Shown one piece after another: positions 21,899-64,000 of a DNA stretch of 64,000 bases. The DNA comes from Butyrivibrio sp. Su6 (GTDB lineage: Bacteria; Bacillota; Clostridia; Lachnospirales; Lachnospiraceae): positions 248,001 through 312,000 of the forward strand of contig NZ_FNUR01000003.1 in assembly GCF_900108105.1 (NCBI RefSeq). Reading direction: 5' to 3'. Each line of letters opens with the position of its first letter. Positions within the stretch are counted from its first letter, which is position 1. Below the pieces are notes generated by a model, which saw only the letters and a program-made list of their open reading frames with translations, did not search any database and was not told the origin of the DNA. A program made the translations under genes and the position numbers.

Positions 21899-21930
21899 AT
21901 AACAATCCTGGTTAAAGCATTTGTATTGTT

Positions 21931-22091
21931 GATAGCGCCCCATCTTTCGATGACAGTCATACAGCTGTTTACTGCATGCCCAAGTATCCAATCCTCAGGT
22001 AATTGAACCTTTCGGCGTATTTACCTTTTTTCCTGATTCATCTGTGCCTGACACATCCACAGAAATACTCATTAAATACGCAACCTCTATC
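21931..22091 (-). promoter_or_regulatory. Lysine riboswitch (L box)
   Basis: The minus strand from 22091 carries the L-box hallmarks in order: GATAGAGGTTGCG at the 5' end, GAGTAT, GGAAAAAAGG, ACGCCGAAAGG, TTGGGC, CTGTATGACTGTCA, and the closing GGGGCGCTATC, which pairs back with the 5' GATAG. It sits upstream of a terminator hairpin and dapA. Binding of lysine should favour the terminator. Confidence 0.93.
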
Positions 22092-22219
22092 TAAACCGTC
22101 TTTAGTTGTTTTAAATACTACAACACGAAGAAAAGCGTGTCAAGAGCGCCGCACGTTTTCCAATAAAGTAGCCACTATAAACATTTTATTATTACTTTCT
22201 TAAGGAAATGAAAATGGGG

Positions 22220-22303: not shown

Positions 22304-24133
22304 ATGAAGCAGACTAGAAATGATGTAAGAAACGTTGCTATTATCGCTCACGTTGACCATGGTAAAACAACTCTGGTTGACGGACTTTTAAGACAGAGTG
22401 GTGTATTCCGTGCCGGTCAGGAAGTTGTAGAACGTGTTATGGACTCCGGGGATATCGAAAAAGAGCGTGGTATTACCATCATGTCTAAAAACACAGCTAT
22501 CACATATAAAGATATCAAGATCAACATCATTGATACTCCAGGTCACGCAGACTTTGGTGGTGAGGTTGAGCGAGTTCTTAAGATGGTTAACGGCGTAATC
22601 CTTGTCGTTGACGCTTTCGAAGGTCCTATGCCACAGACCAAGTTCGTTCTTGGTAAGGCAATGGATCTTGGTCTTCCTGTTATTGTATGTATCAACAAGA
22701 TTGACCGTCCTGAAGCAAGACCAAACGATGTTATCGATGAAGTACTTGAGCTCCTTATGGATCTTGGTGCCGATGATAACCAGCTTGACTGCCCATTCGT
22801 ATTTGCATCAGCCAAGGCTGGAACATCATCACTTTCACTTGATGAACCCGGCACAGATATGAAGCCACTTCTTGATACAATCGTTAATTATATTCCAGCT
22901 CCTGTTGGTGATCCTGATGCGAGCACACAGGTACTTATCAGCACAATCGATTACAACGAGTACGTTGGACGTATCGGTGTAGGTAAGGTTGATAACGGTG
23001 TCGTTAAGGTTAACCAGGAAGTTGTTGTTGTTAACCACCACGAGCCAGCCAGACGTATCAAGACCAAGATCAGCAAGCTCTATGAGTACGATGGCCTTGG
23101 AAGAGTTGAAGTTCAGGAAGCAAAGATTGGTTCAATCGTTGCTATTTCAGGTATCGAAGATCTGAAGATCGGTGATACACTTTGCTCAGTTGATAATCAG
23201 GTTGCTATTCCATTCCAGAAGATTTCAGAGCCTACTATTTCAATGAACTTCATTGTAAATGACTCTCCACTTGCTGGTCAGGAAGGTAAATATGTAACCA
23301 GCCGTCACCTTCGTGACAGACTTTATAAGGAACTTAACACTGACGTTTCTCTTCGTGTAGAAGATACAGATACAACAGAGACATTCAAAGTTTCAGGACG
23401 TGGTGAGCTTCACCTTTCAGTTCTTATTGAGACAATGCGTCGTGAAGGCTTTGAGTTCGCTGTAAGTAAGGCAGAGGTTATCTACCACACAGATGAACAG
23501 GGTCACAAACTTGAGCCTATGGAAAAATGCTACATTGATGTTCCTGATGAATTCTCAGGAAGCGTTATCCAGAAGCTCGGTGAGAGAAAAGGTGAGCTTG
23601 TAAACATGGGTGCCGGAAACGGTGGATACACTCGTCTTGAGTTCAACATTCCTTCACGTGGACTTATCGGATACAGAGGTGAGTTCATGACTGATACAAA
23701 GGGTAATGGTATCATCAACACAATCTTCGACGGATATGCTCCTTATAAGGGAGATATGAATTACCGTAAGACAGGTTCAGTCATCGCTTTCGAGACAGGT
23801 GAAGCTACAGCATACGGTCTTTTCAATGCTCAGGATCGTGGACAGCTCTTCATCAAGACAGGTGATAAGGTTTACTCAGGAATGGTTATCGGAACAAGTG
23901 GTAAGTCTGAGGACGTTGAGGTTAATGTCTGCAAGACAAAGCACCTTACAAATACAAGAACATCATCTTCTGATGAAGCTCTTCGTCTTGTTCCACCTAG
24001 GATCATGTCCCTTGAGCAGTGCATCGAATTCATCGATAACGATGAGCTTTTGGAGGTAACACCTACAAGCCTTCGTATCAGAAAGAGAATCCTTGATCCT
24101 ACTCTTCGTAAAAGAGCTGGCTTCAAGAAATAA
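22304..24133 (+). CDS. typA: Ribosome-binding GTPase TypA/BipA
   Basis: A 609-residue translational GTPase that binds the 70S ribosome and helps 50S assembly and growth under stress. The G domain is complete: G1 AHVDHGKTT (15-23), G2 EKERGITI (51-58), G3 DTPGHADFGGE (76-86), G4 NKID (near 130), G5 SAKAG. The domain order with EF-G-like domains and the BipA-specific C-terminal domain is full length. It has its own promoter and the RBS AAAGG. Its terminator is a hairpin that also forms the outermost part of the repeat element that follows. Confidence 0.97.
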   Translation: MKQTRNDVRNVAIIAHVDHGKTTLVDGLLRQSGVFRAGQEVVERVMDSGDIEKERGITIMSKNTAITYKDIKINIIDTPGHADFGGEVERVLKMVNGVILVVDAFEGPMPQTKFVLGKAMDLGLPVIVCINKIDRPEARPNDVIDEVLELLMDLGADDNQLDCPFVFASAKAGTSSLSLDEPGTDMKPLLDTIVNYIPAPVGDPDASTQVLISTIDYNEYVGRIGVGKVDNGVVKVNQEVVVVNHHEPARRIKTKISKLYEYDGLGRVEVQEAKIGSIVAISGIEDLKIGDTLCSVDNQVAIPFQKISEPTISMNFIVNDSPLAGQEGKYVTSRHLRDRLYKELNTDVSLRVEDTDTTETFKVSGRGELHLSVLIETMRREGFEFAVSKAEVIYHTDEQGHKLEPMEKCYIDVPDEFSGSVIQKLGERKGELVNMGAGNGGYTRLEFNIPSRGLIGYRGEFMTDTKGNGIINTIFDGYAPYKGDMNYRKTGSVIAFETGEATAYGLFNAQDRGQLFIKTGDKVYSGMVIGTSGKSEDVEVNVCKTKHLTNTRTSSSDEALRLVPPRIMSLEQCIEFIDNDELLEVTPTSLRIRKRILDPTLRKRAGFKK

Positions 24134-24186
24134 TTCTTTTTTGCAAGCAGGACACAGTAAACTGTCAAAATATACATTGTAAATTA

Positions 24187-24239
24187 GGGAGAGTGTTCTG
24201 ATGGATGCAATTAGCATACATCAGAGTACTCTCTTTTTG
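24187..24239 (+). terminator. Terminator of typA, inverted twin of the hairpin at 25802-25849
   Basis: Long stem: GAGTGTTCTGATG...CATCAGAGTACTC around ATGCAATTAGCAT, followed by TCTTTTT. An inverted, similar hairpin lies beyond the other end of element A. The similarity continues for about 25 bp inward (TGTATATGCGTAAGT). Confidence 0.8.
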
Positions 24240-24290
24240 TATATGCGTAAGTATTGCTTTGAATAACTTTTAAGAAATAGGTAGGTAATC

Positions 24291-24540
24291 GGCTACGTAC
24301 GCCACCATTGACTGAACCTGAGGAAAACGCCTTGGTCTGCAAGCCGACGGTGATGATGATGGGAACAGTAAAATTTCACGCACCGTCGGAACCAGCATTG
24401 TAGCGTTTTCCTCAGAACCCGTCAATGGCAAGCACCTTCGGTGTGGCTGGTTTTTATGCCTCAGGATCCAATTCCGAGAACAGTAGGGATGGCTACTTTC
24501 AAGAGCGTGTAGGGCTATATTTTCATTTTACTGTGAGAAT
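24291..24540 (+). repeat. Element A left terminal inverted repeat
   Basis: Inverted copy of 25498-25748, about 250 bp, clearly alignable with few gaps. It folds on itself: CCATTGAC (from 24305) with GTCAATGG, GAGGAAAACGC (24320-24330) with GCGTTTTCCTC (24403-24413), and CCGACGGTG (24344-24352) with CACCGTCGG (24381-24389), plus a small CACC-TTC-GGTG hairpin further in. Confidence 0.85.
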
Positions 24541-24571
24541 TTATTATGATACGCCTTGCGATTACAGAATC

Positions 24572-24832
24572 CATGGCCTAATCAGCAGATTTCAAATGTC
24601 TAGGTCATGTTTTTTGTCATGATACGCCCTGCTATTACAGAATTCATGACCTAATCAACGGATTTCATAAGTCTAGGTCATGTTTTTTGTCATGGAATCG
24701 CTCTGCCATTACAGAATCCATGACCTAATCAACGGATTTCATAAGTCTAGGTCATGTTTTTTGTCATGGAATCGCTCTGCTATTGCAGAATCCATGACCT
24801 AATCAGTGGATTTCATAAGTCTAGGTCATGTT
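24572..24832 (+). repeat. Element A module I: four tandem ~74-bp hairpin units
   Basis: Units start at 24572, 24645, 24719 and 24793 (periods 73, 74, 74). Each has the stem ATGACCTA...TAGGTCAT; the first three stems are followed by GTTTTTT, so they look like intrinsic terminators on the plus strand. The linker GTCATG...CATGAC can pair instead, which gives mutually exclusive folds. Confidence 0.85.
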
Positions 24833-24856
24833 TAGATAGCTCGTCCACCCGGCTTT

Positions 24857-25099
24857 GGGCATATAGCATGATATCGAGCTTGCAGCCACCCCTCATCATA
24901 GCTTTTATCGCAGGCATTTGGGCATATACGGCGATTATCCGTCCGCAGCCACCATTTTAACGGGTGGCTCGAGTCTTGAAATCGGCCTATATGCCCAGTT
25001 GACCTTCATGAGGGGTGGCTGGCCTCGCAAAAAGTTGCTATAAGGACAAATTAGTAAAAATCTTAGGTGGCTGGAAGCTCTAAAAAGCGCTATATGCCC
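24857..25099. repeat. Element A module II: nested symmetric inverted repeats
   Basis: Outer pair GGGCATATAGC (24857-24867) / GCTATATGCCC (25089-25099). Then AGCCACCCCTCAT (24884-24896) / ATGAGGGGTGGCT (25008-25020), a perfect 13-bp stem. Then GGGCATATACGGC (24920-24932) / GCCTATATGCCC, and innermost AGCCACC (24947-24953) / GGTGGCT (24963-24969). Almost the whole module is a palindrome of palindromes. Confidence 0.85.
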
Positions 25100-25156
25100 A
25101 AAGCAATTTCTATTGGTTGCCGATTCAAATTGGATAAATGTGAGATTAACTGAGAT

Positions 25157-25467
25157 GTGGGATAAGATCAAAAAAACTGTAACGTTTATCCTATTATGTC
25201 CTAGTGATACTGCTGTGATGTAGGATAAAAGCGAAAGAATTATAATACTTATCCTATTCTATCCAAGCCGATTTTCAGAGACGCGGGATAAAACCAGGAA
25301 TTCTATTGAAGTTATCCTACATTTTCAGCCTTTGAGCACTGCGCTTGAATGAAAAATAGGATAAGCGCGATAAAAACCACCGAATTATCCCACAAATCAG
25401 CAGAATTGTTAACAAAAATGATAAGAATAGTGGGATAAAAAGCGCTAAAATCAAGCAGTTATCCTAC
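25157..25467. repeat. Element A module III: five GGATAA/TTATCC hairpin units
   Basis: Five units of about 35 bp, each with GGGATAA or AGGATAA at one end and TTATCC at the other. They start near 25157, 25221, 25284, 25356 and 25429. Their loops differ, but the ends are constant. The first and last units contain GTGGGATAA. Confidence 0.8.
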
Positions 25468-25497
25468 ATCCTCTCCTACATCAGTTCCTATCTCCAG

Positions 25498-25748
25498 ATT
25501 GTCACAGTGAAATGAGCATATAGCACTGCACACTCTTGAAAGTAGCCACTCCTACTGTTCTCGGAGTCAGAGCCCGAGGCAATAACACCCAGCCACACCG
25601 CAGGTGCTTGCCATTGACGGGTTCTGAGGAAAACGCTACAATGCTGAATCCGACGGTGCGATAGAATCTACTGTTCCCATCATCCTCACCGTCGGCTCGC
25701 AGGCCAAGGCGTTTTCCTCAGGTTCAGTCAATTGTGGCGTACGTAGCC
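25498..25748 (-). repeat. Element A right terminal inverted repeat
   Basis: Inverted copy of 24291-24540. It starts internally with ATTGTCACAGTGAAAT (25498-25513) and ends with GGCGTACGTAGCC. It retains the same internal stems (GAGGAAAACGC/GCGTTTTCCTC, CCGACGGTG/CACCGTCGG). Confidence 0.85.
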
Positions 25749-25801
25749 GCAATCTAAAATTTTTAGAGAGTTAAAGAAGTCACTTACGCATATACAAATA
25801 A

Positions 25802-25849
25802 AGAGTATTCAGATTTATGCTAATTACATTTATCTGAATACTCTCCCTT
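25802..25849 (-). terminator. Terminator of yigZ, inverted twin of the typA terminator
   Basis: On the minus strand AGTATTCAGAT pairs with ATCTGAATACT around an ATTAGCAT core, followed by a T-rich stretch. It lies downstream of the yigZ stop. Its loop and flank match the typA terminator in inverted orientation. Confidence 0.7.
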
Positions 25850-25942: not shown

Positions 25943-26575
25943 CTACTGCCGAAAATAGTCCTTATCCCCTTCTATAATGCTTATCTGGCCTTCACATTTT
26001 TGGGTAAGGCCGTCAGTTATGCGTTTTACATCTGCTTCTTTTACGCAGATATCAAACTGAACGTTAGCTTCATAACGGGAGTCTGCGATGGTGATATTGT
26101 TCTGCCCAAGGTAATACTGAACATTATTTACCATGTTATAGGCAACTTCCAAGGTGAGCTTCTGTGAATATACCATTTCACCAATCCGGGCATCTGCGAT
26201 TCCTGCCTGTGCAGCCTGGGTATAAGCCCTTACAAGGCCACCTGTTCCAAGTAATACCCCACCAAAATATCTGGTTACTATTACAAGGGTATTGGTAAGG
26301 CCCTCACCTTTTATTACCTCAAGTATTGGCTTTCCTGCTGTTCCTGAAGGCTCGCCATTATCACTGCATCTTGTATTCTCGCTATTTTTTCCAATAACAA
26401 AAGCGTAGCAGTTATGACGTGCATCCCAATATTTTTTGGAAATCTCTGCTATTTTTTCTTCTGCCTGCTGCTGGTTTTCCACAGGAAAAACATTTGCGAT
26501 AAAGCGGGATTTTTTCTCGACAATCTCTCCGCATCCATTTGAAATTACTACTTTATAAGAATCTCTTTCACTCAT
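25943..26575 (-). CDS. YigZ/IMPACT family protein
   Basis: A 210-residue protein of the YigZ (UPF0029/IMPACT) family. The N-terminal domain carries the family signature: KSRFIANVFPV, ARHNCYAFVIG, DNGEPSGTAGKPILE and TRYFGGVLLGTGGLVRAY (about residues 22-120). The C-terminal ferredoxin-like domain (about 140-205) is present. In eukaryotes IMPACT modulates Gcn2; in bacteria a translation-related role is suspected but not established. It is a single gene facing typA across element A. Confidence 0.93.
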   Translation of the reverse strand: MSERDSYKVVISNGCGEIVEKKSRFIANVFPVENQQQAEEKIAEISKKYWDARHNCYAFVIGKNSENTRCSDNGEPSGTAGKPILEVIKGEGLTNTLVIVTRYFGGVLLGTGGLVRAYTQAAQAGIADARIGEMVYSQKLTLEVAYNMVNNVQYYLGQNNITIADSRYEANVQFDICVKEADVKRITDGLTQKCEGQISIIEGDKDYFRQ

Positions 26576-31937: not shown

Positions 31938-32018
31938 TGCGGATGACAGGACTTGAACCTGCACGTCGGAGACACTAGAACCTAAATCTAGCGCGTCTGC
32001 CAGTTCCGCCACATCCGC
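31938..32018 (-). tRNA. tRNA-Leu (anticodon TAG)
   Basis: The acceptor stem GCGGATG pairs with the 3' arm CATCCGC. The anticodon stem CTAGA/TCTAG encloses loop TTTAGGT, anticodon TAG. A long class II variable arm is present, as expected for leucine. CCA is not encoded. Confidence 0.95.
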
Positions 32019-32069
32019 ATATCCGCTTCACACGAACAAAATTGATTATACAAAGTTTATAAACTAATT

Positions 32070-33401
32070 TCAAGTATTATTCTCAAAAACCTTGGTGAGC
32101 CAGTTGCCTTTGAAATAGTAGATTATAAAGATTATGGCACTGACAGACCAGGTAAGTGGATAAGCCCAGAATATAACATTGACCACAGGAATTATCCTGA
32201 CAATTATAGTTATATAGGTAATTCTCAGAAGACACCAGCTAGAGAGCATGACAACCATTGGTACTGTTGTCTTACCTGCTCCTCTGTATATTCCTGCCAG
32301 ACAATGATTTAAGGCCAAAAGGCAGTAGAATAAGCTCTCTGTTCTTGCCTGAGTTGCTCCTATCAAAAGAACCTCCGGCTCAGATGAAAACATTCTGAGA
32401 AATACCGGTGCAAACAAAAATACCATGAGGCCTATAAATTCAGCACAGCTGACGCTGATAACACTTCCGATAACAGCGCCTTTCTTTACCCTCGCAAGTT
32501 CTTTTGCTCCTACATTCTGACTTACGAAAGTGGTCAAAGCCATGGACATACATGTTATAGGCAAAAATACAAAACCTTCAAGTTTAAAGTAGCTTCCGCA
32601 TCCTGCCATTGCAGCTGAGCCAAATGCGTTGATATTGGACTGAACCACAACATTTCCGATGGCAATAACACTATTCTGTATTCCTGTAGGAAAACCTATC
32701 ATAAGCTCTTTTTTAATAGTCTCAGGATCCATTCTAAGTTTCCTTATATTGATCCTGTGAGGCCCCTGAACCTGTGTTAGCTTAATAAACGCAAGCAGTG
32801 CACTGACAAACTGAGCAATAACCGTGGCAAGAGCTGCCCCTGCGATTCCAAAACCAAGATCTCTTACAAATAAAAGATCCAGTACCGTATTAAGCACCGT
32901 GCTGACCATCAGATAGTACAAAGGCCTCTTGGAATCACCCATGGCCTGAAATACGCCGCAGCAGGCGCTATAAAGTACATTTCCAAGTCCGCCAAGGAAA
33001 TATATCTTAAAATACATGATCGAATTGGGCATTACATCTTCAGGAGTTCCCATCCATCCAAGCAGCACCGGTGTAAAGAAATAACCAAATACTGTAAGTA
33101 CAAGTCCCATAAGGATTGAGAATGTTATCCCTGTATGAGCAGCAATTGATACTCCCTTTTCATCTCCGGCTCCGTATCTTTTTCCGATGATAACACTGCT
33201 TCCCATAAAAAGACCATTTATAAAGCCAACCATCAAAAAAATAAGGCTACCTGTGGTACTAACAGCAGCCAGAGCTTCTTTACCAAGAACATTACCAACT
33301 ACAACTGAATCGACTACATTGTACAGCTGCTGTAAGAGCTGTCCTAAAAAAAGTGGAATTGCAAATAAAATCAGATTTTTGGAAATAGAACCCTTTGTCA
33401 T
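32070..33401 (-). CDS. MATE family efflux transporter
   Basis: A 443-residue exporter with twelve predicted membrane segments, related to the MATE gene at 29476. The start MTKGSISKNLILFAIPLFLGQ is typical, with AGGTG upstream as ribosome binding site. It exports cationic drugs or metabolites by ion antiport; the substrate is unknown. It lies between tRNA-Leu and the tRNA-Lys cluster, all on the minus strand. Confidence 0.93.
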   Translation of the reverse strand: MTKGSISKNLILFAIPLFLGQLLQQLYNVVDSVVVGNVLGKEALAAVSTTGSLIFLMVGFINGLFMGSSVIIGKRYGAGDEKGVSIAAHTGITFSILMGLVLTVFGYFFTPVLLGWMGTPEDVMPNSIMYFKIYFLGGLGNVLYSACCGVFQAMGDSKRPLYYLMVSTVLNTVLDLLFVRDLGFGIAGAALATVIAQFVSALLAFIKLTQVQGPHRINIRKLRMDPETIKKELMIGFPTGIQNSVIAIGNVVVQSNINAFGSAAMAGCGSYFKLEGFVFLPITCMSMALTTFVSQNVGAKELARVKKGAVIGSVISVSCAEFIGLMVFLFAPVFLRMFSSEPEVLLIGATQARTESLFYCLLALNHCLAGIYRGAGKTTVPMVVMLSSWCLLRITYITIIVRIIPVVNVIFWAYPLTWSVSAIIFIIYYFKGNWLTKVFENNT

Positions 33402-33495
33402 AACACACCTAAAAAATTAAGAACAATTAAATCATGCACATGCATGTGGCAAAACAAAAACCTTGCAAACATACCGTTTACAAGGCTTCTTGAAA

Positions 33496-33568
33496 TGAGA
33501 CACGGGGGAATCGAACCCCCGACAACTTGATTAAAAGTCAAGTGCTCTACCGACTGAGCTAGTATCCC
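33496..33568 (-). tRNA. tRNA-Lys (anticodon TTT)
   Basis: Acceptor GGGATAC/GTGTCTC, T-stem GGGGG/CCCCC with TTCGATT loop, anticodon loop CTTTTAA. First transcribed base at 33568. CCA not encoded. Confidence 0.96.
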
Positions 33569-33620
33569 ATGTATTACTATGAACAAATTTCGACGCAAAA
33601 TCACATCCTGTTACGCCTAA

Positions 33621-33692
33621 CTGGGCTAGCCGGATTCGAACCGTCGTATGCAGCAGTCAAAGTGCTGTGCCTTACCGCTTGGCGATAGCCCA
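33621..33692 (-). tRNA. tRNA-Gln (anticodon TTG)
   Basis: Acceptor TGGGCTA/TAGCCCA, anticodon stem CAGCA/TGCTG with loop CTTTGAC, anticodon TTG. Starts with T as is usual for tRNA-Gln. Confidence 0.95.
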
Positions 33693-33708
33693 ACGCACTT
33701 TCGTGCAG

Positions 33709-33783
33709 GGTGGCTAGAGGGACTCGAACCCTCGGTCTCCAGAACCACAATCTGGCGCGTTAACCAACTACGCTATAGCCACC
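33709..33783 (-). tRNA. tRNA-His (anticodon GTG)
   Basis: Acceptor GTGGCTA/TAGCCAC with the extra G at -1 (33783) opposite C73, a histidine hallmark. Anticodon stem CCAGA/TCTGG, loop TTGTGGT. Confidence 0.96.
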
Positions 33784-33877
33784 ATATTGCGGTGCTACAC
33801 TAACGATGGAACTGTCAGTGTCCACCAATGGCTCGCACTAGCCATAAAACCGGCAAGTACTCTGCTCATAAAAAAGA

Positions 33878-33951
<74 letters not shown>

Positions 33952-33955
33952 ATGA

Positions 33956-34026
33956 AGCGGGTGATGGGAATCGAACCCACGTATCTAGCTTGGAAGGCTA
34001 GTGTTCTACCATTGAACTACACCCGC
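33956..34026 (-). tRNA. tRNA-Gly (anticodon TCC)
   Basis: Acceptor GCGGGTG/CACCCGC, anticodon stem CTAGC/GCTAG with loop CTTCCAA, anticodon TCC. Short, 71 nt, as is usual for tRNA-Gly. Confidence 0.96.
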
Positions 34027-34099
34027 AAAACATTTCATAATGAAATTGTCTTGCTTTTACGTTTTCGGCAAAGCTGACGTTTCAAGTTGAAAACTTGAG

Positions 34100-34174
34100 T
34101 CGGGGTGACAGGATTCGAACCTGCGACCCCCTGCTCCCAAAGCAGGTGCTCTAGCCAAACTGAGCCACACCCCG
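34100..34174 (-). tRNA. tRNA-Pro (anticodon TGG)
   Basis: Acceptor CGGGGTG/CACCCCG, anticodon stem CCTGC/GCAGG with loop TTTGGGA, anticodon TGG. First gene of the minus-strand cluster Pro-Gly-Arg-His-Gln-Lys. Confidence 0.96.
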
Positions 34175-34268
34175 TCTTGCTTTATTGCCTTTCGCCGTAA
34201 CGCGAGATTTATTATATAATGATTCGGGCCGAAATGTCAACAAGTTTTTTGCAATTTTTTTAACGTTT

Positions 34269-34751
34269 TTATAAGTACTTTATTTCATAGTTTATTATAT
34301 CACTGTCATCTGTCGTAAGTATGATGTAGCTTGGTCTTCTGCCCTCCTGCCTGGGGTATGATAAACTGCCAGGATTGAACAGGTAAACTCCTCCCATGGT
34401 CTTGGCAACAGGTTTATGAGTGTGACCAAAAAATACAACTTCGGCTCCTCTGGCAATTCCTTCACTGCGAATATAATCAAGATCCATAGATACCATATAG
34501 TTATGTCCATGGGTCAAAAAAGCTTTGTGACCATCAAATGTAAATTCCAATTCTCTATTCAGGTCAGAGAAAAAATCATTATTTCCGGCAACGAAATATA
34601 CAGGGCAGTTTGCAGCTATGGCAAATTTGCCCTCAGAGCCTTCAAAATCCCCACAGTGAATAATTCCATCCAAAGGTTCTTCAAGGTCTAAAACATCGTA
34701 AAAATTATTATCTCTGCCATGAGTATCACTCACAACTAAATACTTATGCAT
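34269..34751 (-). CDS. YfcE/MJ0936-type metallophosphoesterase
   Basis: A 160-residue calcineurin-like phosphoesterase. All metal-binding blocks are present in order: VVSDTHGRD, IHCGDFEG, VAGNNDF, LTHGHNY and FFGHTHKP. Small proteins of this family hydrolyse phosphodiesters in vitro, with uncertain natural substrates. It starts three bases after the rdgB stop, so the two are translationally linked; the pair rdgB-yfcE is common in Firmicutes. It is last in a four-gene operon. Confidence 0.93.
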   Translation of the reverse strand: MHKYLVVSDTHGRDNNFYDVLDLEEPLDGIIHCGDFEGSEGKFAIAANCPVYFVAGNNDFFSDLNRELEFTFDGHKAFLTHGHNYMVSMDLDYIRSEGIARGAEVVFFGHTHKPVAKTMGGVYLFNPGSLSYPRQEGRRPSYIILTTDDSDIINYEIKYL

Positions 34752-34754
34752 AAA

Positions 34755-35372
34755 TCAAATTCCTTCCCCAAGTAACTTTGCCATTTCTCTGAGAGCTTTT
34801 CCCCTGTGGCTGATAGAGTTCTTTTCCTCCGGACTAATCTCTGCGGATGTCTTTCCAAATTCAGGTAAAAAGAAAATAGGATCATATCCAAAGCCGTTCT
34901 CTCCGGCAATCTCATAGCCTATTCTGCCCTCCATGGTTCCCTGGCAGGAATAGGTCTTTCCATCAGGAAGTACCGCTGAAATAGCACATACAAAGCGCGC
35001 TGTTCTCTCTTCATCAGGCACTCCTTCAAGTCTTTCAATGATCTTATTATTCTTTATAGTATAGGATGTATCCTCTCCCATGTATCTTGCAGAGTAGATT
35101 CCGGGTTCCCCGTTTAAATAATCAACCTCAAGCCCCGAATCATCGGCAAGAACAATTGTCTCCCCCGCTTCTTCCGAGCTTTTTTCCCTTATCATTTCAT
35201 AGACAGCTTTGGCCTTTATCATGGAGTTTTCAGCAAAAGATGTTCCATTCTCCACAATATCTCCATCTACGCCTGCTTCTTTCATAGAGAGAATTTCCAT
35301 ACCAAGTCCGCCAAGTATCTCGCGGATCTCTCTCATCTTATTCTTATTGCCTGTCGCAAATACTATCCTCAT
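34755..35372 (-). CDS. rdgB: XTP/dITP diphosphatase (RdgB/HAM1)
   Basis: A 205-residue house-cleaning nucleotide pyrophosphatase that removes XTP and dITP before they enter nucleic acid. It has the start FATGNKNKMREI, the substrate-binding ENSMIKAKA, VLADDSGLEVDYLNGEPG (about 76-93), GFGYDPIF and SHRGKAL near the end. RBS is GGGAG. It lies 16 bp after the degenerate amidase gene and three bases before the phosphoesterase gene. Confidence 0.96.
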   Translation of the reverse strand: MRIVFATGNKNKMREIREILGGLGMEILSMKEAGVDGDIVENGTSFAENSMIKAKAVYEMIREKSSEEAGETIVLADDSGLEVDYLNGEPGIYSARYMGEDTSYTIKNNKIIERLEGVPDEERTARFVCAISAVLPDGKTYSCQGTMEGRIGYEIAGENGFGYDPIFFLPEFGKTSAEISPEEKNSISHRGKALREMAKLLGEGI

Positions 35373-35388
35373 ACCAGATATCTCCCAA

Positions 35389-36390
35389 TTATTTATTTAC
35401 AGCTGCTTCCGCTTTTAATATAGCCTCATAAAGCCCCTCAGCTGCCTTTTTTTCATCCCCGTTGGACTCATATTCAATGTATAACCTTGCAGATGGTATA
35501 GTAGCTGTATTCAGCAGCATATCGTCTTCTTTGGCCTCATAGATTCCTTCAGCCACTGCCCCAAGCTTTTCTGCCGTGCTTCTTTCAAGCATATCAGCAA
35601 ATTCCGCGTTATTTAGGCTTCGTAAAAAGAACTGACTATTATAGTAGGCTGATACGTTTGCTCCGTTCGTATCATCCTTTTTCGTAGCATTTAAAGCTAC
35701 TAAAAGGTCAGCCTGAGCTTCATTAACAAACTCTGCCGCACGCTGTTGTGTAACAGTATCTCCCGAAAGATCTGTAAAGTATATCTTTAAGTTGTTTTCT
35801 TCATCTTTTGCAGAAATATCTTTTAACTCACGGGCAATCTCTATTGCACCACCCATACCGTATATATCGCTGGCACACGGATCAACAACAACTACGCCGT
35901 CATATATGTCTGAAGGCTTATTAAACTCAACCTCAATAGTACTTGACTCCGTAAGAGAGATTGAACTTGCATACAGTCCATCAAGCACAAAGTCAAGGCA
36001 AACACTTCCGCTGTCATTTTCAGCAACACACACCGCGCTTCTTAAAATATCAATATCCGTAACCACTGCATTGTCGAGGTAAAATCCCTCTTCTCTGCTG
36101 TCTATATAAATCCTCAGTTCATGATCAATATACCTGTCTTCGAGTACGATGTCATCAGAACTTACAGTCCTGGACAATGGTATTATAAGCTTGCCAGACT
36201 GTCCTTTTTGGACATTCCGGTCAATCAGTATATTATAAGAATCCACAGTAGTTGCCCTGTCTATATGCGTTCCTGCGGCATCCGTGATCAGAATATGCTT
36301 GGTGGCAGCCCTTTGAAGCATGACCACAAGGGAAATTGCTCCAAAAATCCCGGCTTTTATAGCCACCCTTTTCATCTGCTCGTTATTCAT
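35389..36390 (-). CDS. Membrane-anchored, degenerate N-acetylmuramoyl-L-alanine amidase (Amidase_3-like)
   Basis: A 333-residue protein. An N-terminal signal anchor (AIKAGIFGAISLVVML, about 10-25) is followed by a beta-rich domain resembling AMIN (about 55-160), then an Amidase_3-like domain (about 165-325). The domain order and landmarks fit, but zinc-binding residues are missing: the DPGHGG motif reads DPCASDIYG, SIHAN reads ALNAT, and the final catalytic-Glu segment reads ARLYIEYESN. It is probably non-catalytic and may bind glycan or regulate another hydrolase. The assignment rests on pattern similarity, not on a profile search. It sits between an RNA methyltransferase and rdgB in the same operon. 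Confidence 0.65.
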   Translation of the reverse strand: MNNEQMKRVAIKAGIFGAISLVVMLQRAATKHILITDAAGTHIDRATTVDSYNILIDRNVQKGQSGKLIIPLSRTVSSDDIVLEDRYIDHELRIYIDSREEGFYLDNAVVTDIDILRSAVCVAENDSGSVCLDFVLDGLYASSISLTESSTIEVEFNKPSDIYDGVVVVDPCASDIYGMGGAIEIARELKDISAKDEENNLKIYFTDLSGDTVTQQRAAEFVNEAQADLLVALNATKKDDTNGANVSAYYNSQFFLRSLNNAEFADMLERSTAEKLGAVAEGIYEAKEDDMLLNTATIPSARLYIEYESNGDEKKAAEGLYEAILKAEAAVNK

Positions 36391-36427
36391 AGATCTTTTT
36401 CCCCATCATAAGAGGCCTCCAAAAAGC

Positions 36428-37576
36428 TTAGCTGTTCTTTCTTGGAGGCTTTGGCCCCATAAACTGATAAAAATATGTTTTGATCATACCGTTATAGATC
36501 TTCCTGTTTTTATCAGCTTTTTTGCCAATATATTTCTCAGCCTGTTCAAATCCTGTAATAAGGTACATTGACCAGGCGTCAAGTGCTTTGTATCTCTCAC
36601 CAATAGTCCTATAAAGAGAAGGAAGCTCCTTCTGGTCACCAATTCTCTCACCATAAGGAGGATTAGTTATAATAAAGCCGTATTTTTTCCTGTGACTAAG
36701 TTCAGCAATGTCTCTGGCCTGGAAATGGATCAGATGATCAACACCGGCCTTTTTGGCATTTATCCTGGCTATTTCAACCATTTCAGGATCAAGATCATAC
36801 CCCTGAATGTCAGTTTCAATATCGGGCAGGATTTCTTCTCTGGCCTCTTCACGGACATCCTCCCAGTTCTTGGGATCTATCAGATTGGTCCACTTCTCAG
36901 CTGTGAAATGCCTGTTTATACCAGGTGCGATATGAGCCGCGATCATGGCCGCTTCAATAGGAATAGTTCCACTTCCACAGAAAGGATCCACCAAAATCCT
37001 GTCCCCGTGCCATGGAGTGAGCATTATAAGAGCAGCCGCAAGGTTCTCTGCGATAGGAGCCTTGGACTCAAGCTTTCTGTAGCCTCTTTTGTGAAGAGAA
37101 TCACCTGTAGTATCAAGAGCTACCGTAACCTCATCCTTCATTAAAAAGACTCTGATAGGGTATTCTTCAGCGTCCTCTTTGAACCAGTCAGTATTGTAGC
37201 TCTGCTTCATTCTTTCAACGATAGCTTTTTTCACAATGGACTGAATGTCAGAAGGGCTAAAGAGCTTACTCTTAACACTGGATGCTTTTTTTACCCAGAA
37301 CTTGCCTCTCTCCGGAATAAACTCTTCCCAGGCAAGCGCCTTAACTCCCTGATAAAGATCCTCAAAGGTCTCAGCGTGAAAGCTTCCGACTTTAATAAGG
37401 ACTCTTTCTGCAGTTCTCAGGCAGATATTGGCGCGACATACAGCATCTGCATCTCCGGCAAAAGAAATCCTTCCGTCTGAGACTTCTGTGATATCATAGC
37501 CAAGGTCTATTATTTCTTTTTTCAAAACGGATTCCAGGCCAAAATGACATGGACAAATTAAATCATATTTTTTCAT
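36428..37576 (-). CDS. THUMP-domain class I RNA methyltransferase (RlmL-N/YpsC type)
   Basis: A 382-residue enzyme. The start at 37576 has CGGAG five bases ahead. The N-terminal ferredoxin-like and THUMP domains span about 5-150. The methyltransferase domain has DPFCGSGTIPIEAAM (about 190) and the N6-adenine/N2-guanine-type NPPYGER (about 295). It belongs to the group of 23S rRNA m2G methyltransferases (RlmL/YpsC). It is first in the operon with the degenerate amidase, rdgB and yfcE genes. Confidence 0.93.
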   Translation of the reverse strand: MKKYDLICPCHFGLESVLKKEIIDLGYDITEVSDGRISFAGDADAVCRANICLRTAERVLIKVGSFHAETFEDLYQGVKALAWEEFIPERGKFWVKKASSVKSKLFSPSDIQSIVKKAIVERMKQSYNTDWFKEDAEEYPIRVFLMKDEVTVALDTTGDSLHKRGYRKLESKAPIAENLAAALIMLTPWHGDRILVDPFCGSGTIPIEAAMIAAHIAPGINRHFTAEKWTNLIDPKNWEDVREEAREEILPDIETDIQGYDLDPEMVEIARINAKKAGVDHLIHFQARDIAELSHRKKYGFIITNPPYGERIGDQKELPSLYRTIGERYKALDAWSMYLITGFEQAEKYIGKKADKNRKIYNGMIKTYFYQFMGPKPPRKNS

Positions 37577-37611
37577 CATAACTCCGATTATAACAAACAA
37601 AAGGGCACAAA

Positions 37612-37648
37612 AAAAGATGCATCTAATGTTAAACTAGATGCATCTTCC
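37612..37648 (-). terminator. Terminator of tRNA-Arg (ACG)
   Basis: AAGATGCATCTA pairs with TAGATGCATCTT immediately downstream of the tRNA, followed on the minus strand by a run of T residues. Confidence 0.85.
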
Positions 37649-37650
37649 AG

Positions 37651-37724
37651 TGTGCGTGACAGGATTCGAACCCACGACCTTCTGGTCCGTAGCCAGACGC
37701 TCTATCCAGCTGAGCTACACGCAC
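37651..37724 (-). tRNA. tRNA-Arg (anticodon ACG)
   Basis: Acceptor GTGCGTG/CACGCAC, anticodon stem TCTGG/CCAGA with loop CTACGGA. ACG is converted to ICG by TadA in bacteria and reads CGU/C/A. Single gene with its own terminator. Confidence 0.96.
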
Positions 37725-62748: not shown

Positions 62749-62985
62749 GGCTCCGTACGCCACCATTGACTGAACCTGAGAAAAACGCCTTGGCCTTAGA
62801 GCCGACGGTGAGGATGATGAGAACAGTAGTTAGATTCATACACCGTCGGATTCAGCATTGTAGCGTTTTTCTCAGAACCCGCCAATGGCAAGCACCTTCG
62901 GTGTGGCTGGGGATTATTGCCTCAGGCTTTGACTCCGAGAACAGTAGGGATGGCTACTTTCAAAGATGTATGTCTGCGTCTTTCA
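62749..62985 (+). repeat. Element B left terminal inverted repeat
   Basis: Aligns with 24291-24530. Its main stem is GAGAAAAACGC (62778-62788) with GCGTTTTTCTC (62863-62873): a change on both sides against element A that preserves pairing. The CCGACGGTG/CACCGTCGG stem is identical. Confidence 0.85.
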
Positions 62986-63075
62986 ATGTAAAGAGAGCGA
63001 AGATTCTGTTTTGGAAATATAGCCTGATTTTTGAGATTACAACACCATTCGACAAGGATTTTGACGTGTGATTTT

Positions 63076-63246
63076 GGGTATATACGGCCTTATTTGAGGT
63101 TACCACACCATTATATAGAGATCATATGTCTAAAGTTCACTCATCCAATGGATGTGGCAATCCATTTTTTCTCATATATGCCCAATTACACTTCCTGAAA
63201 ATTTAGCCGATGGATGTGGTAACTTAAAAAGTATAGCTATATACCC
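63076..63246. repeat. Element B module II
   Basis: Outer stem GGGTATATA (63076-63084) with TATATACCC (63238-63246). The inner pair GTTACCACACCAT with ATGGATGTGGTAAC replaces the AGCCACCCCTCAT/ATGAGGGGTGGCT pair of element A. Confidence 0.75.
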
Positions 63247-63268
63247 ATTTCACTGTGACAATCCGAAT

Positions 63269-63581
63269 GTAGGATAATCGCTTGATTTTAGCGCTTTTTA
63301 TCCTACAGATTTGACCATTCTGATAATGGATTTTGCTCGTGAGTAGGATAAACGTTTGACTTTTACTCATTTTATCCCACAATTCTCATGGTTCTGACTG
63401 AGAATTGTGGGATAAAACAATTGATTTTTTCACGATTATCCTACTTTTTGGACAATTACAGTGCTCAGAAGGCTGAAAATGTGGGATAATCTCAAGAGAA
63501 TTTCAGGTTTTATCCCACACATCTGAAAATCGGCTTGGATAGAGTGGGATAAGTATTACAAATCTTTCGCTTTTATCCTAC
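63269..63581. repeat. Element B module III: five GGATAA/TTATCC units
   Basis: Five hairpin units in reverse orientation to those of element A. The first is the reverse complement of the last unit in A (shared AAGCGCTAAAATCAAGC). Inverted copies of ATTGTCACAGTGAAAT (63247-63262 and 63600-63615) bracket the module. Confidence 0.8.
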
Positions 63582-63693
63582 ATCTTCTCCTAGCTCTGGA
63601 TTGTCACAGTGAAATAGATAAAGTGCTTAAATAATGTGCTTTTTATCTATGGATTTGGTCATCCGTTATTCAATATTCATTCCATAAAGCAAA

Positions 63694-63880
63694 ACATGAC
63701 CTAAGTAAAAGAAACATACTGATTAGGTCATGAATTCTGTAATAGCGAGGCAATATCATGACAAAAACTATGACCTAGACAAATGAAAAATGCTGTTTAG
63801 GTCATGAATGCTGTGATAACAAGGCAATATCATGACAAAAATCATGACCTAGGCAAGTGAAAAATGCTAATTAGGTCATG
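63694..63880 (-). repeat. Element B module I: three TAGGTCATG hairpin units
   Basis: Three units in reverse orientation to module I of element A, with the same CATGACCTA/TAGGTCATG stems, the conserved T-rich tail, and the linker resembling CTGTAATAGCGAGGC. Confidence 0.8.
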
Positions 63881-63921
63881 TTTTTTGTAATAGCACGTTA
63901 TCCGTGCAGGTTATAATAAAT

Positions 63922-64000
63922 AAATTGTCACAGTAAAATGAGAATATAGCCCTACACATTATTGAAACTAGCCACTTCTACTGTTCTCGGAATTGGAACC
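63922..64000 (-). repeat. Element B right terminal inverted repeat, truncated by window end
   Basis: Inverted copy of the inner end of the arms (ATTGTCACAGTAAAATGAG, then the region of CTGTTCTCGGAATTGGAACC). In the frame that is open in the other three arms it has a TAG stop. Confidence 0.75.

What the first reader, a model, noticed from the sequence alone, without database searches (positions are those of the whole stretch)
24291..25748. A previously unrecognised type of structured, gene-free mosaic element (copy A)
About 1.46 kb with no convincing gene is built almost wholly of nested inverted repeats: two terminal arms of ~250 bp and three internal modules, each with its own stem sequence. 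A diverged copy with the same parts lies 38 kb away (62749 onward). This does not match IS elements, group II introns, REP/BIME, CRISPR arrays or the large bacterial noncoding RNAs that I know. It could be a non-autonomous mobile element, a long structured RNA, or a DNA site for nucleoid or recombination proteins.
Basis: partly seen in the sequence, partly recalled or inferred. Interest (0 to 1): 0.92.

Follow-up and report, generated by a model that had tools for sequence, protein, structure and literature searches.

The report
Folded-promoter module in mosaic mobile elements
Gene-free repeats scattered through a rumen Butyrivibrio genome are built from two inverted copies of a structured DNA module that also sits behind the transposase gene of several unrelated insertion sequences, and that folds into the shape of a promoter already opened by RNA polymerase, which suggests a starting point for copying single-stranded DNA.

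Summary
Copy A (24291-25748) has no recognised gene, two inverted arms and three hairpin-array modules. In its own genome I tally 37 places with an arm; modules come in different sets and orientations. The host is Butyrivibrio; related arms occur in other Butyrivibrio and rumen Lachnospiraceae. No Rfam family matches.

The key is the arm. Its core (module M, about 165 nt) occurs patchily across Clostridia. In 28 of 58 loci examined a transposase gene lies upstream in the same sense, 23-62 nt away in 24 of them. The transposases are unrelated: IS6-like, IS3, IS30, ISL3, IS256. The last four are named in the literature as copy-out/paste-in families.

M keeps a promoter (TTGA, mostly 17-nt spacer, TAnnnT) inside a long covarying hairpin (26 of 37 pairs changed on both sides). 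The unpaired bubble runs from -11 to about +2, like an RNA polymerase open complex. Two direct repeats, one beside the stop codon and one in the apical loop, change together between loci.

Best reading: M is a folded single-strand promoter like plasmid sso/Frpo, possibly priming second-strand synthesis of transposon circles; the mosaics are non-autonomous elements with two Ms. Anatomy is shown, function inferred.

The parts
24186..24252 (+). left outer terminator-like hairpin followed by the motif GTATATGCGTAAG, pointing into the element
   Evidence: motif with up to 2 mismatches at 35 places, 30 of them within 140 nt of an arm match
24289..24452 (-). left arm: module M (sense strand is -)
   Evidence: model R1, 190.6 bits, E 5.7e-43
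24420..24425 (-). -35 (TTGACG) of left M
   Evidence: letters checked; conservation
24397..24402 (-). -10 (TACAAT) of left M, 17-nt spacer
   Evidence: letters checked; conservation
24363..24370 (-). left M, direct-repeat copy in the apical loop (GAACAGTA on +)
24478..24486 (-). left M, outer direct-repeat copy (GAACAGTAG on +)
24466..24550 (.). left inner arm, pairs with the right inner arm
24551..24835 (.). module A: 74-bp tandem hairpin array, stem ATGACCTA/TAGGTCAT
24846..25110 (.). module B: nested hairpins with stems GGGCATATA and CAGCCACC
25141..25490 (.). module C: hairpin array, stem GTGGGATAA/TTATCCCAC
25498..25585 (.). right inner arm
25552..25560 (+). right M, outer direct-repeat copy CTACTGTTC
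25587..25750 (+). right arm: module M (sense strand is +)
   Evidence: 187.4 bits
25614..25619 (+). -35 TTGACG of right M
   Evidence: letters checked
25637..25642 (+). -10 TACAAT of right M, 17-nt spacer
   Evidence: letters checked
25668..25676 (+). right M, direct-repeat copy in the apical loop CTACTGTTC
25782..25848 (-). right outer terminator-like hairpin and motif (inverted copy of 24186-24252)
62749..64000 (.). copy B, continues past the window end

Best explanation
Copy A is one of up to 37 non-autonomous mobile mosaic elements in this Butyrivibrio genome. Its two inverted arms are copies of a portable module, M. Unrelated insertion sequences in Clostridia (IS6-like, IS3, IS30, ISL3, IS256) carry M behind the transposase gene. 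M most likely works as a folded single-strand promoter, like the RNA-polymerase-dependent single-strand origins (sso) of rolling-circle plasmids and Frpo of the F plasmid. When its sense strand becomes single-stranded, it folds so that -35 and spacer are duplex and -11 to about +2 is open. RNA polymerase can then start without melting DNA and lays down a primer for the second strand. SHOWN: the repeats, the promoter letters, the covarying hairpin, the bubble position, the coupled direct repeats, the position behind several kinds of transposase. INFERRED: that single-stranded DNA is the active form, that RNA polymerase uses it, that it serves transposon circles, and that M helps the mosaics to move. 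NOT KNOWN: which transposase moves the mosaics, and what the hairpin-array modules A-C do.
For: Covariation on 32 diverse Ms: 96.0% of cells paired against 80.5% in shuffles, 26 of 37 pairs changed on both sides, 0 of 500 shuffles as high; sliding the partner drops pairing to 40.0-43.9%. Promoter score of at least 9/12 with a 16-18 nt spacer in 122 of 137 unique arm cores, spacer 17 in 111. In the 32-row alignment -10 keeps A2 and T6 in 31, and -35 stands 17 nt before the aligned -10 in 29 (16 in L014, 18 in L160, 19 in L157). Position -12 is paired in 26 of 32; the bubble is 13 nt on the 5' side in 21 of 32 (14 in 5, 15 in 6) and 12-13 nt on the 3' side in 32. Transposases upstream: IS3 311 and 307 bits, IS30 92, ISL3 237, IS256 409, all above cut-off; IS6-like 74-79, below the cut-off of 125. 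IS3, IS30, IS256 and ISL3 are named as copy-out/paste-in circle families in PMC7986276, and replication converts the figure-eight to a circle in PMC7780238 (passages). sso and Frpo are described as folded promoters in PMC4595007 and PMC11541004 (passages). Direct repeats match within a locus (mean 10.4) better than under permutation (mean 6.6, maximum 7.5 of 5000) over 50 loci.
Against: No experiment. Nothing I read says that copy-out transposition needs a dedicated second-strand origin. Of 58 M loci examined, 23 gave no match to my five query transposases although upstream sequence was held (one of them, L171, proved to be IS256), and 8 were at contig edges; the match of M itself at L171 is modest (55 bits). 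The 58 loci are not independent: several come from one genome. The single intact IS6-like element of the own genome has no match to the M model. G.U/A.C asymmetry, which would point to the sense strand, depends on the structure used (46:5, 11:11, shared pairs 4:1; 14:9 in the diverse set). Eight of 50 loci do not show clear coupling of the repeats (10 or more of 49 other loops match as well), and the permutation ignores relatedness. The structure was derived from the same alignment, which favours it over the slid controls. The hairpin directs polymerase into the apical loop. The IS3 piece L208 folded poorly (z -1.07), although my range cut off part of its 3' arm.
Confidence: 0.45

Rival explanations
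1. M is an ordinary double-stranded promoter for a small RNA encoded behind the transposase; the RNA begins with the S2 hairpin, presents the direct repeat in its loop and pairs by its 3' part with the transposase mRNA tail, regulating transposition.
For: Conserved promoter; S2 hairpin directly after the start site; terminator-like stem plus T run before the right end in the G115 and G441 elements (by eye).
Against: The covarying stem S1 has its 5' arm upstream of the start, outside such an RNA; no clear terminator seen by eye behind the IS30 and IS3 versions; the bubble limits match an open complex, which a small RNA would not require.
Confidence: 0.22
2. M is a structured 3' untranslated or noncoding RNA of the transposase transcript that guides or scaffolds the recombination machinery, in the manner of the IS110 bridge RNA; the loop repeat acts as a guide matching the DNA at the end of the transposase gene.
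For: Same sense as the transposase and begins near its stop codon; loop repeat varies but matches the flanking repeat within most loci.
Against: Partners are several unrelated DDE-type transposases, not the IS110 recombinase; a promoter inside the stem is unexplained.
Confidence: 0.1
3. M is a 6S-RNA-like decoy: as RNA it imitates an open promoter and binds RNA polymerase.
For: Bubble of 13-15 nt flanked by two stems.
Against: No Rfam match, 6S included; the -35 and -10 letters are kept, which are read in DNA form.
Confidence: 0.06
4. The mosaics are simple MITEs/BIME-like palindromic repeats; the arm structure is kept only by repeated correction of quasi-palindromes, without function.
For: Palindromic, intergenic (11 convergent, 12 tandem, 0 divergent of 23 places with a gene called on both sides), high copy.
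Against: Correction of inverted repeats would not keep an unpaired stretch over -11..+2, a 17-nt spacer or the -10 letters across genera.
Confidence: 0.12

Closest known systems
RNA-polymerase-dependent single-strand origins (sso of rolling-circle plasmids; sso1 of ICEBs1; M13 complementary-strand origin)
   Same: Single strand folds into stem-loops that RNA polymerase reads as a promoter; sso1 is orientation-specific (PMC4595007 passages; M13 recalled)
   Different: Carried by IS elements and gene-free mosaics, coupled pair of direct repeats, bubble limits at -11 and about +2; sequence similarity to known ssos was not tested
Frpo / ssi single-strand promoters of conjugative plasmids
   Same: Folded single strand imitates a duplex promoter (PMC11541004 passages)
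   Different: There the promoter drives leading-region genes; here the start site faces the apical loop
MITEs of IS families
   Same: Gene-free, long inverted arms, many intergenic copies
   Different: The shared part is not the IS terminus: in the G115 element the ends GGTAGTG.../...CACTACC with 8-bp duplications lie some 90 nt further out; no target duplication found for the mosaics
REP/BIME
   Same: Mosaic of palindromic units between genes; no divergent pair among 23 places
   Different: Units are 250-350 bp hairpin arrays between long arms; a RAYT link was not tested
IS6 family clade h (Clostridia, zinc finger, 340-350 aa; PMC7986276 passage)
   Same: DDE match of IS6 type, 8-bp target duplication, weak N-terminal zinc-ribbon matches below cut-off
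   Different: About 485 aa, NCBIfam IS6 score below cut-off, carries M

Membership tests
sso / folded single-strand promoter | strand folds into stem-loops holding -35 and -10 | tested here: met
sso / folded single-strand promoter | host RNA polymerase makes a primer on the single strand | not testable with these tools
   needs in vitro transcription
sso / folded single-strand promoter | carried by an element with a single-stranded replication stage | tested here: inconclusive
   partners IS3, IS30, ISL3, IS256 use copy-out/paste-in by literature; the stage itself not shown
MITE | terminal inverted repeats shared with an autonomous IS of the genome | tested here: not met
   only the IS6-like copy of the own genome was compared: it lacks M and its ends (GGTAGTG..) are not seen at the mosaic ends; other IS families of the genome were not searched
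MITE | target-site duplication | tested here: inconclusive
   none seen by eye in flanks; the unoccupied site in G065 could not be aligned
Known Rfam RNA | match at gathering score | tested here: not met
REP/BIME | short (20-40 bp, recalled) palindromic units with RAYT transposase | tested here: inconclusive
   units far longer; RAYT not searched
IS110 bridge RNA | IS110-type (DEDD) recombinase partner | tested here: not met
   typed partners are IS6-like, IS3, IS30, ISL3, IS256

The most novel reading that the evidence does not exclude
M is a plug-in second-strand origin shared by unrelated copy-out insertion sequences, with a primer-relocation trick. RNA polymerase starts in the folded bubble and copies the repeat in the apical loop. 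The RNA then re-pairs with the matching repeat outside the hairpin, beside the transposase stop codon, and primes DNA synthesis there. This would explain why the two repeats change together, and why 15 of 137 arm cores lack the promoter segment, cleanly so at the repeat in several that I read.
Probability: 0.2. Interest if true: 0.93.

Novelty: new variant of a known kind. Interest (0 to 1): 0.8.

Why it matters
In the passages I read, the conversion of the figure-eight of copy-out transposition into a double-stranded circle is ascribed simply to replication. A module that looks like an opened promoter and sits behind the transposase of four such families makes this directly testable. It also gives a searchable signature for folded single-strand promoters (duplex to -12, bubble -11 to about +2, coupled repeats), and shows how a module shared with IS elements can build gene-free mosaic elements in tens of places per genome.

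Tried and rejected
Known RNA: Rfam at gathering and lax thresholds, nothing credible in the element. Hidden gene: three ORFs in copy A, no Pfam match. Phage or plasmid DNA: no blastn match of copy A in the phage or plasmid collections; the arm pattern has no exact match in viral contigs. Simple MITE of the resident IS6-like element: its ends and tail differ. Reading the arms as an RNA by G.U asymmetry: 46:5 at first, but the result depends on the structure chosen, so I do not rely on it. Strand test on modules A and B: no clear asymmetry; module C had only 2 full copies and was not tested. Outward transcription as in Frpo: geometry does not fit, since the start site faces the loop. Target duplication and exact mosaic borders: not found. 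Literature: the listings (an open-access library; searches returned no paper) showed no title or abstract describing this module; subscription papers are not covered.

Full report
WHAT IS THERE. Copy A (24291-25748) lies between typA (22304-24133, +) and a yigZ-like gene (25943-26575, -); domains, gene names mine. It holds two inverted arms, two inner arms and three hairpin-array modules. A terminator-like hairpin with the motif GTATATGCGTAAG stands on each side, pointing inwards (24186-24252 and 25782-25848). The motif with up to 2 mismatches occurs at 35 places in the genome, 30 within 140 nt of an arm match. Of the other five I looked at four: three stand behind what looks like a gene terminator, one of these (L236) keeps a short stub of the arm end, and one (L237) does neither; the fifth (C7:24262) was not checked.

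HOW OFTEN. The own genome (3.70 Mb, 23 contigs) gave 157 matches to copy A, not all listed. On the fetched stretches there are 37 places with an arm, copy B counted once; 19 have both arms; of the other 18, 12 are at contig ends and 6 are not. Some contig ends may be halves of one element. Modules A, B and C occur singly or together and in different relative orientation: in L015 module A is reversed relative to B and C as compared with copy A. Of 23 places with a gene called on both sides, 11 are between convergent genes, 12 between genes in tandem, 0 between divergent genes (simple ORF calls). At typA-yigZ, G012 carries an element beside yigZ; nine relatives with typA adjacent gave no match to its parts, among them G065, whose yigZ is most similar (99%); in two further relatives typA was not in the held stretch. 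The borders could not be aligned, so no target duplication is claimed.

WHERE ELSE. Viral contigs gave none. A covariance model of 31 arms (R1) hit 25 of 79 genomes of the genus and 17 of 392 of the order. A second model (R2) hit 22 of 391 of the class and 5 of 398 of the phylum. Counts include the own genome and are lower bounds, since only some candidates per genome were scored.

THE ARM IS AN IS PASSENGER. In distant genomes the module sits in multi-copy elements. In G115 six copies of one element of about 1.88 kb have ends GGTAGTG.../...CACTACC and 8-bp duplications, which I read by eye at all six. I examined 58 M loci, chosen from the wide searches and a few Butyrivibrio loci and leaving out the mosaics of the high-copy genomes. 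By tblastn with five transposases, 20 matched the IS6-like protein, 4 IS3, 2 IS30, 1 ISL3, 23 none, 8 were at contig edges. One of the 23 (L171) has an IS256 transposase. Of these 28, 24 end 23-62 nt before M, in the same sense; in four (L102, L166, L199, L217) the match ends 310-318 nt away. Several loci come from one genome. Family scans put IS3 (311, 307 bits), IS30 (92), ISL3 (237) and IS256 (409) above cut-off, and the IS6-like protein at 74-79 bits, below its cut-off of 125. Other neighbours are ordinary genes (rlmD, trpC, infC) or a relaxase-like frame below cut-off, so solo modules exist. The own genome has one IS6-like match: a 518-aa open frame, 62% identical, with ends of the same type but no match to M.

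ANATOMY OF M. Read in the transposase sense: outer direct repeat, hairpin S4, hairpin S3, then one long hairpin. Its 5' arm holds -35 and the spacer. Then come -10 and start region (unpaired), stem S2, and an apical loop with the second copy of the direct repeat. Then follow the other strand of S2, a fast-varying 12-13 nt segment, and the 3' arm. In the arms of copy A the promoter points outwards. On 32 diverse sequences 26 of 37 pairs show changes on both sides, 20 of 24 in the long stem; cells paired 96.0% against 80.5% shuffled (the structure came from the same alignment). -10 keeps A2 and T6 in 31 of 32. The aligned spacer is 17 nt in 29 of 32. -12 is paired in 26 of 32. The 5' side of the bubble is 13 nt in 21, 14 in 5 and 15 in 6; the 3' side 12 or 13 nt in all 32. 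These are about the limits of an open complex (recalled). Among 137 unique arm cores 122 keep the promoter (no shuffled control was run). The other 15 lack it, in several that I read by clean absence of the segment between the two repeats, in one (L046) next to an IS insertion.

COUPLED REPEATS. Over 50 loci the best match between upstream segment and loop is 10.4 within a locus against 6.6 under permutation (maximum 7.5 of 5000). Examples: CTATCTGTTTTT twice in L160, TAGCTTGCTTT twice in L208, CCTTTATATCTGTT twice in L224. Eight loci (L057, L116, L157, L158, L193, L202, L203, L226) do not show it clearly.

MECHANISM. An RNA started at this promoter would not contain the 5' arm of the long stem, so the stem must matter in another molecule. 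A single DNA strand folded as drawn offers RNA polymerase a duplex -35 and spacer and an already open start region. This is how sso and Frpo are described (PMC4595007, PMC11541004; passages). The typed IS families share copy-out transposition through circles (PMC7986276, PMC7780238; passages), in which replication turns a figure-eight into a circle. I therefore think M primes the second strand. That step is inference. The primer-relocation idea is the boldest form and would explain the coupled repeats and the promoter-less arms; it is not tested. In the mosaics two Ms in opposite sense would let either strand be primed.

LIMITS. The mover of the mosaics, the role of modules A-C and the use of M in cells are unknown. 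The G.U asymmetry is not decisive. The literature library is open access only.

Noticed in passing
L034, L041, L044, L046 (contig ends of the own genome); same ends also at L023, L048, L049, L050: An IS element with ends CAATGTCATTTAGTTAAGG has inserted into arms at four contig ends, three times directly behind GAACAGTAG (L034, L041, L046). Its body was not read in full.
   Followed up: partly
L194 (G000:C5:40256-41689): The IS6-like element of the own genome has the same type of ends and duplication TATTTATC (by eye) but a different non-coding tail, which may hold another structured module.
   Followed up: no
L183 and L190: Head-to-tail tandem copies of the IS6-like (1880 bp period) and IS30-type (1935 bp period) elements, as might come from copy-out dimers.
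   Followed up: partly
L061, L059, L127: In other Butyrivibrio genomes arms adjoin what look like hairpin arrays with other stem sequences (ACTACGTC, GCGGCAG, CGGGTAA; by eye).
   Followed up: no
window 21925-22097: Lysine riboswitch ahead of a dapA-like gene (gene name by eye).
   Followed up: no
window 31938-37724: Eight tRNA genes on the minus strand.
   Followed up: no
L149: A solo M overlaps by a few bases the end of a relaxase-like frame (44.6 bits, below cut-off), in opposite sense.
   Followed up: no
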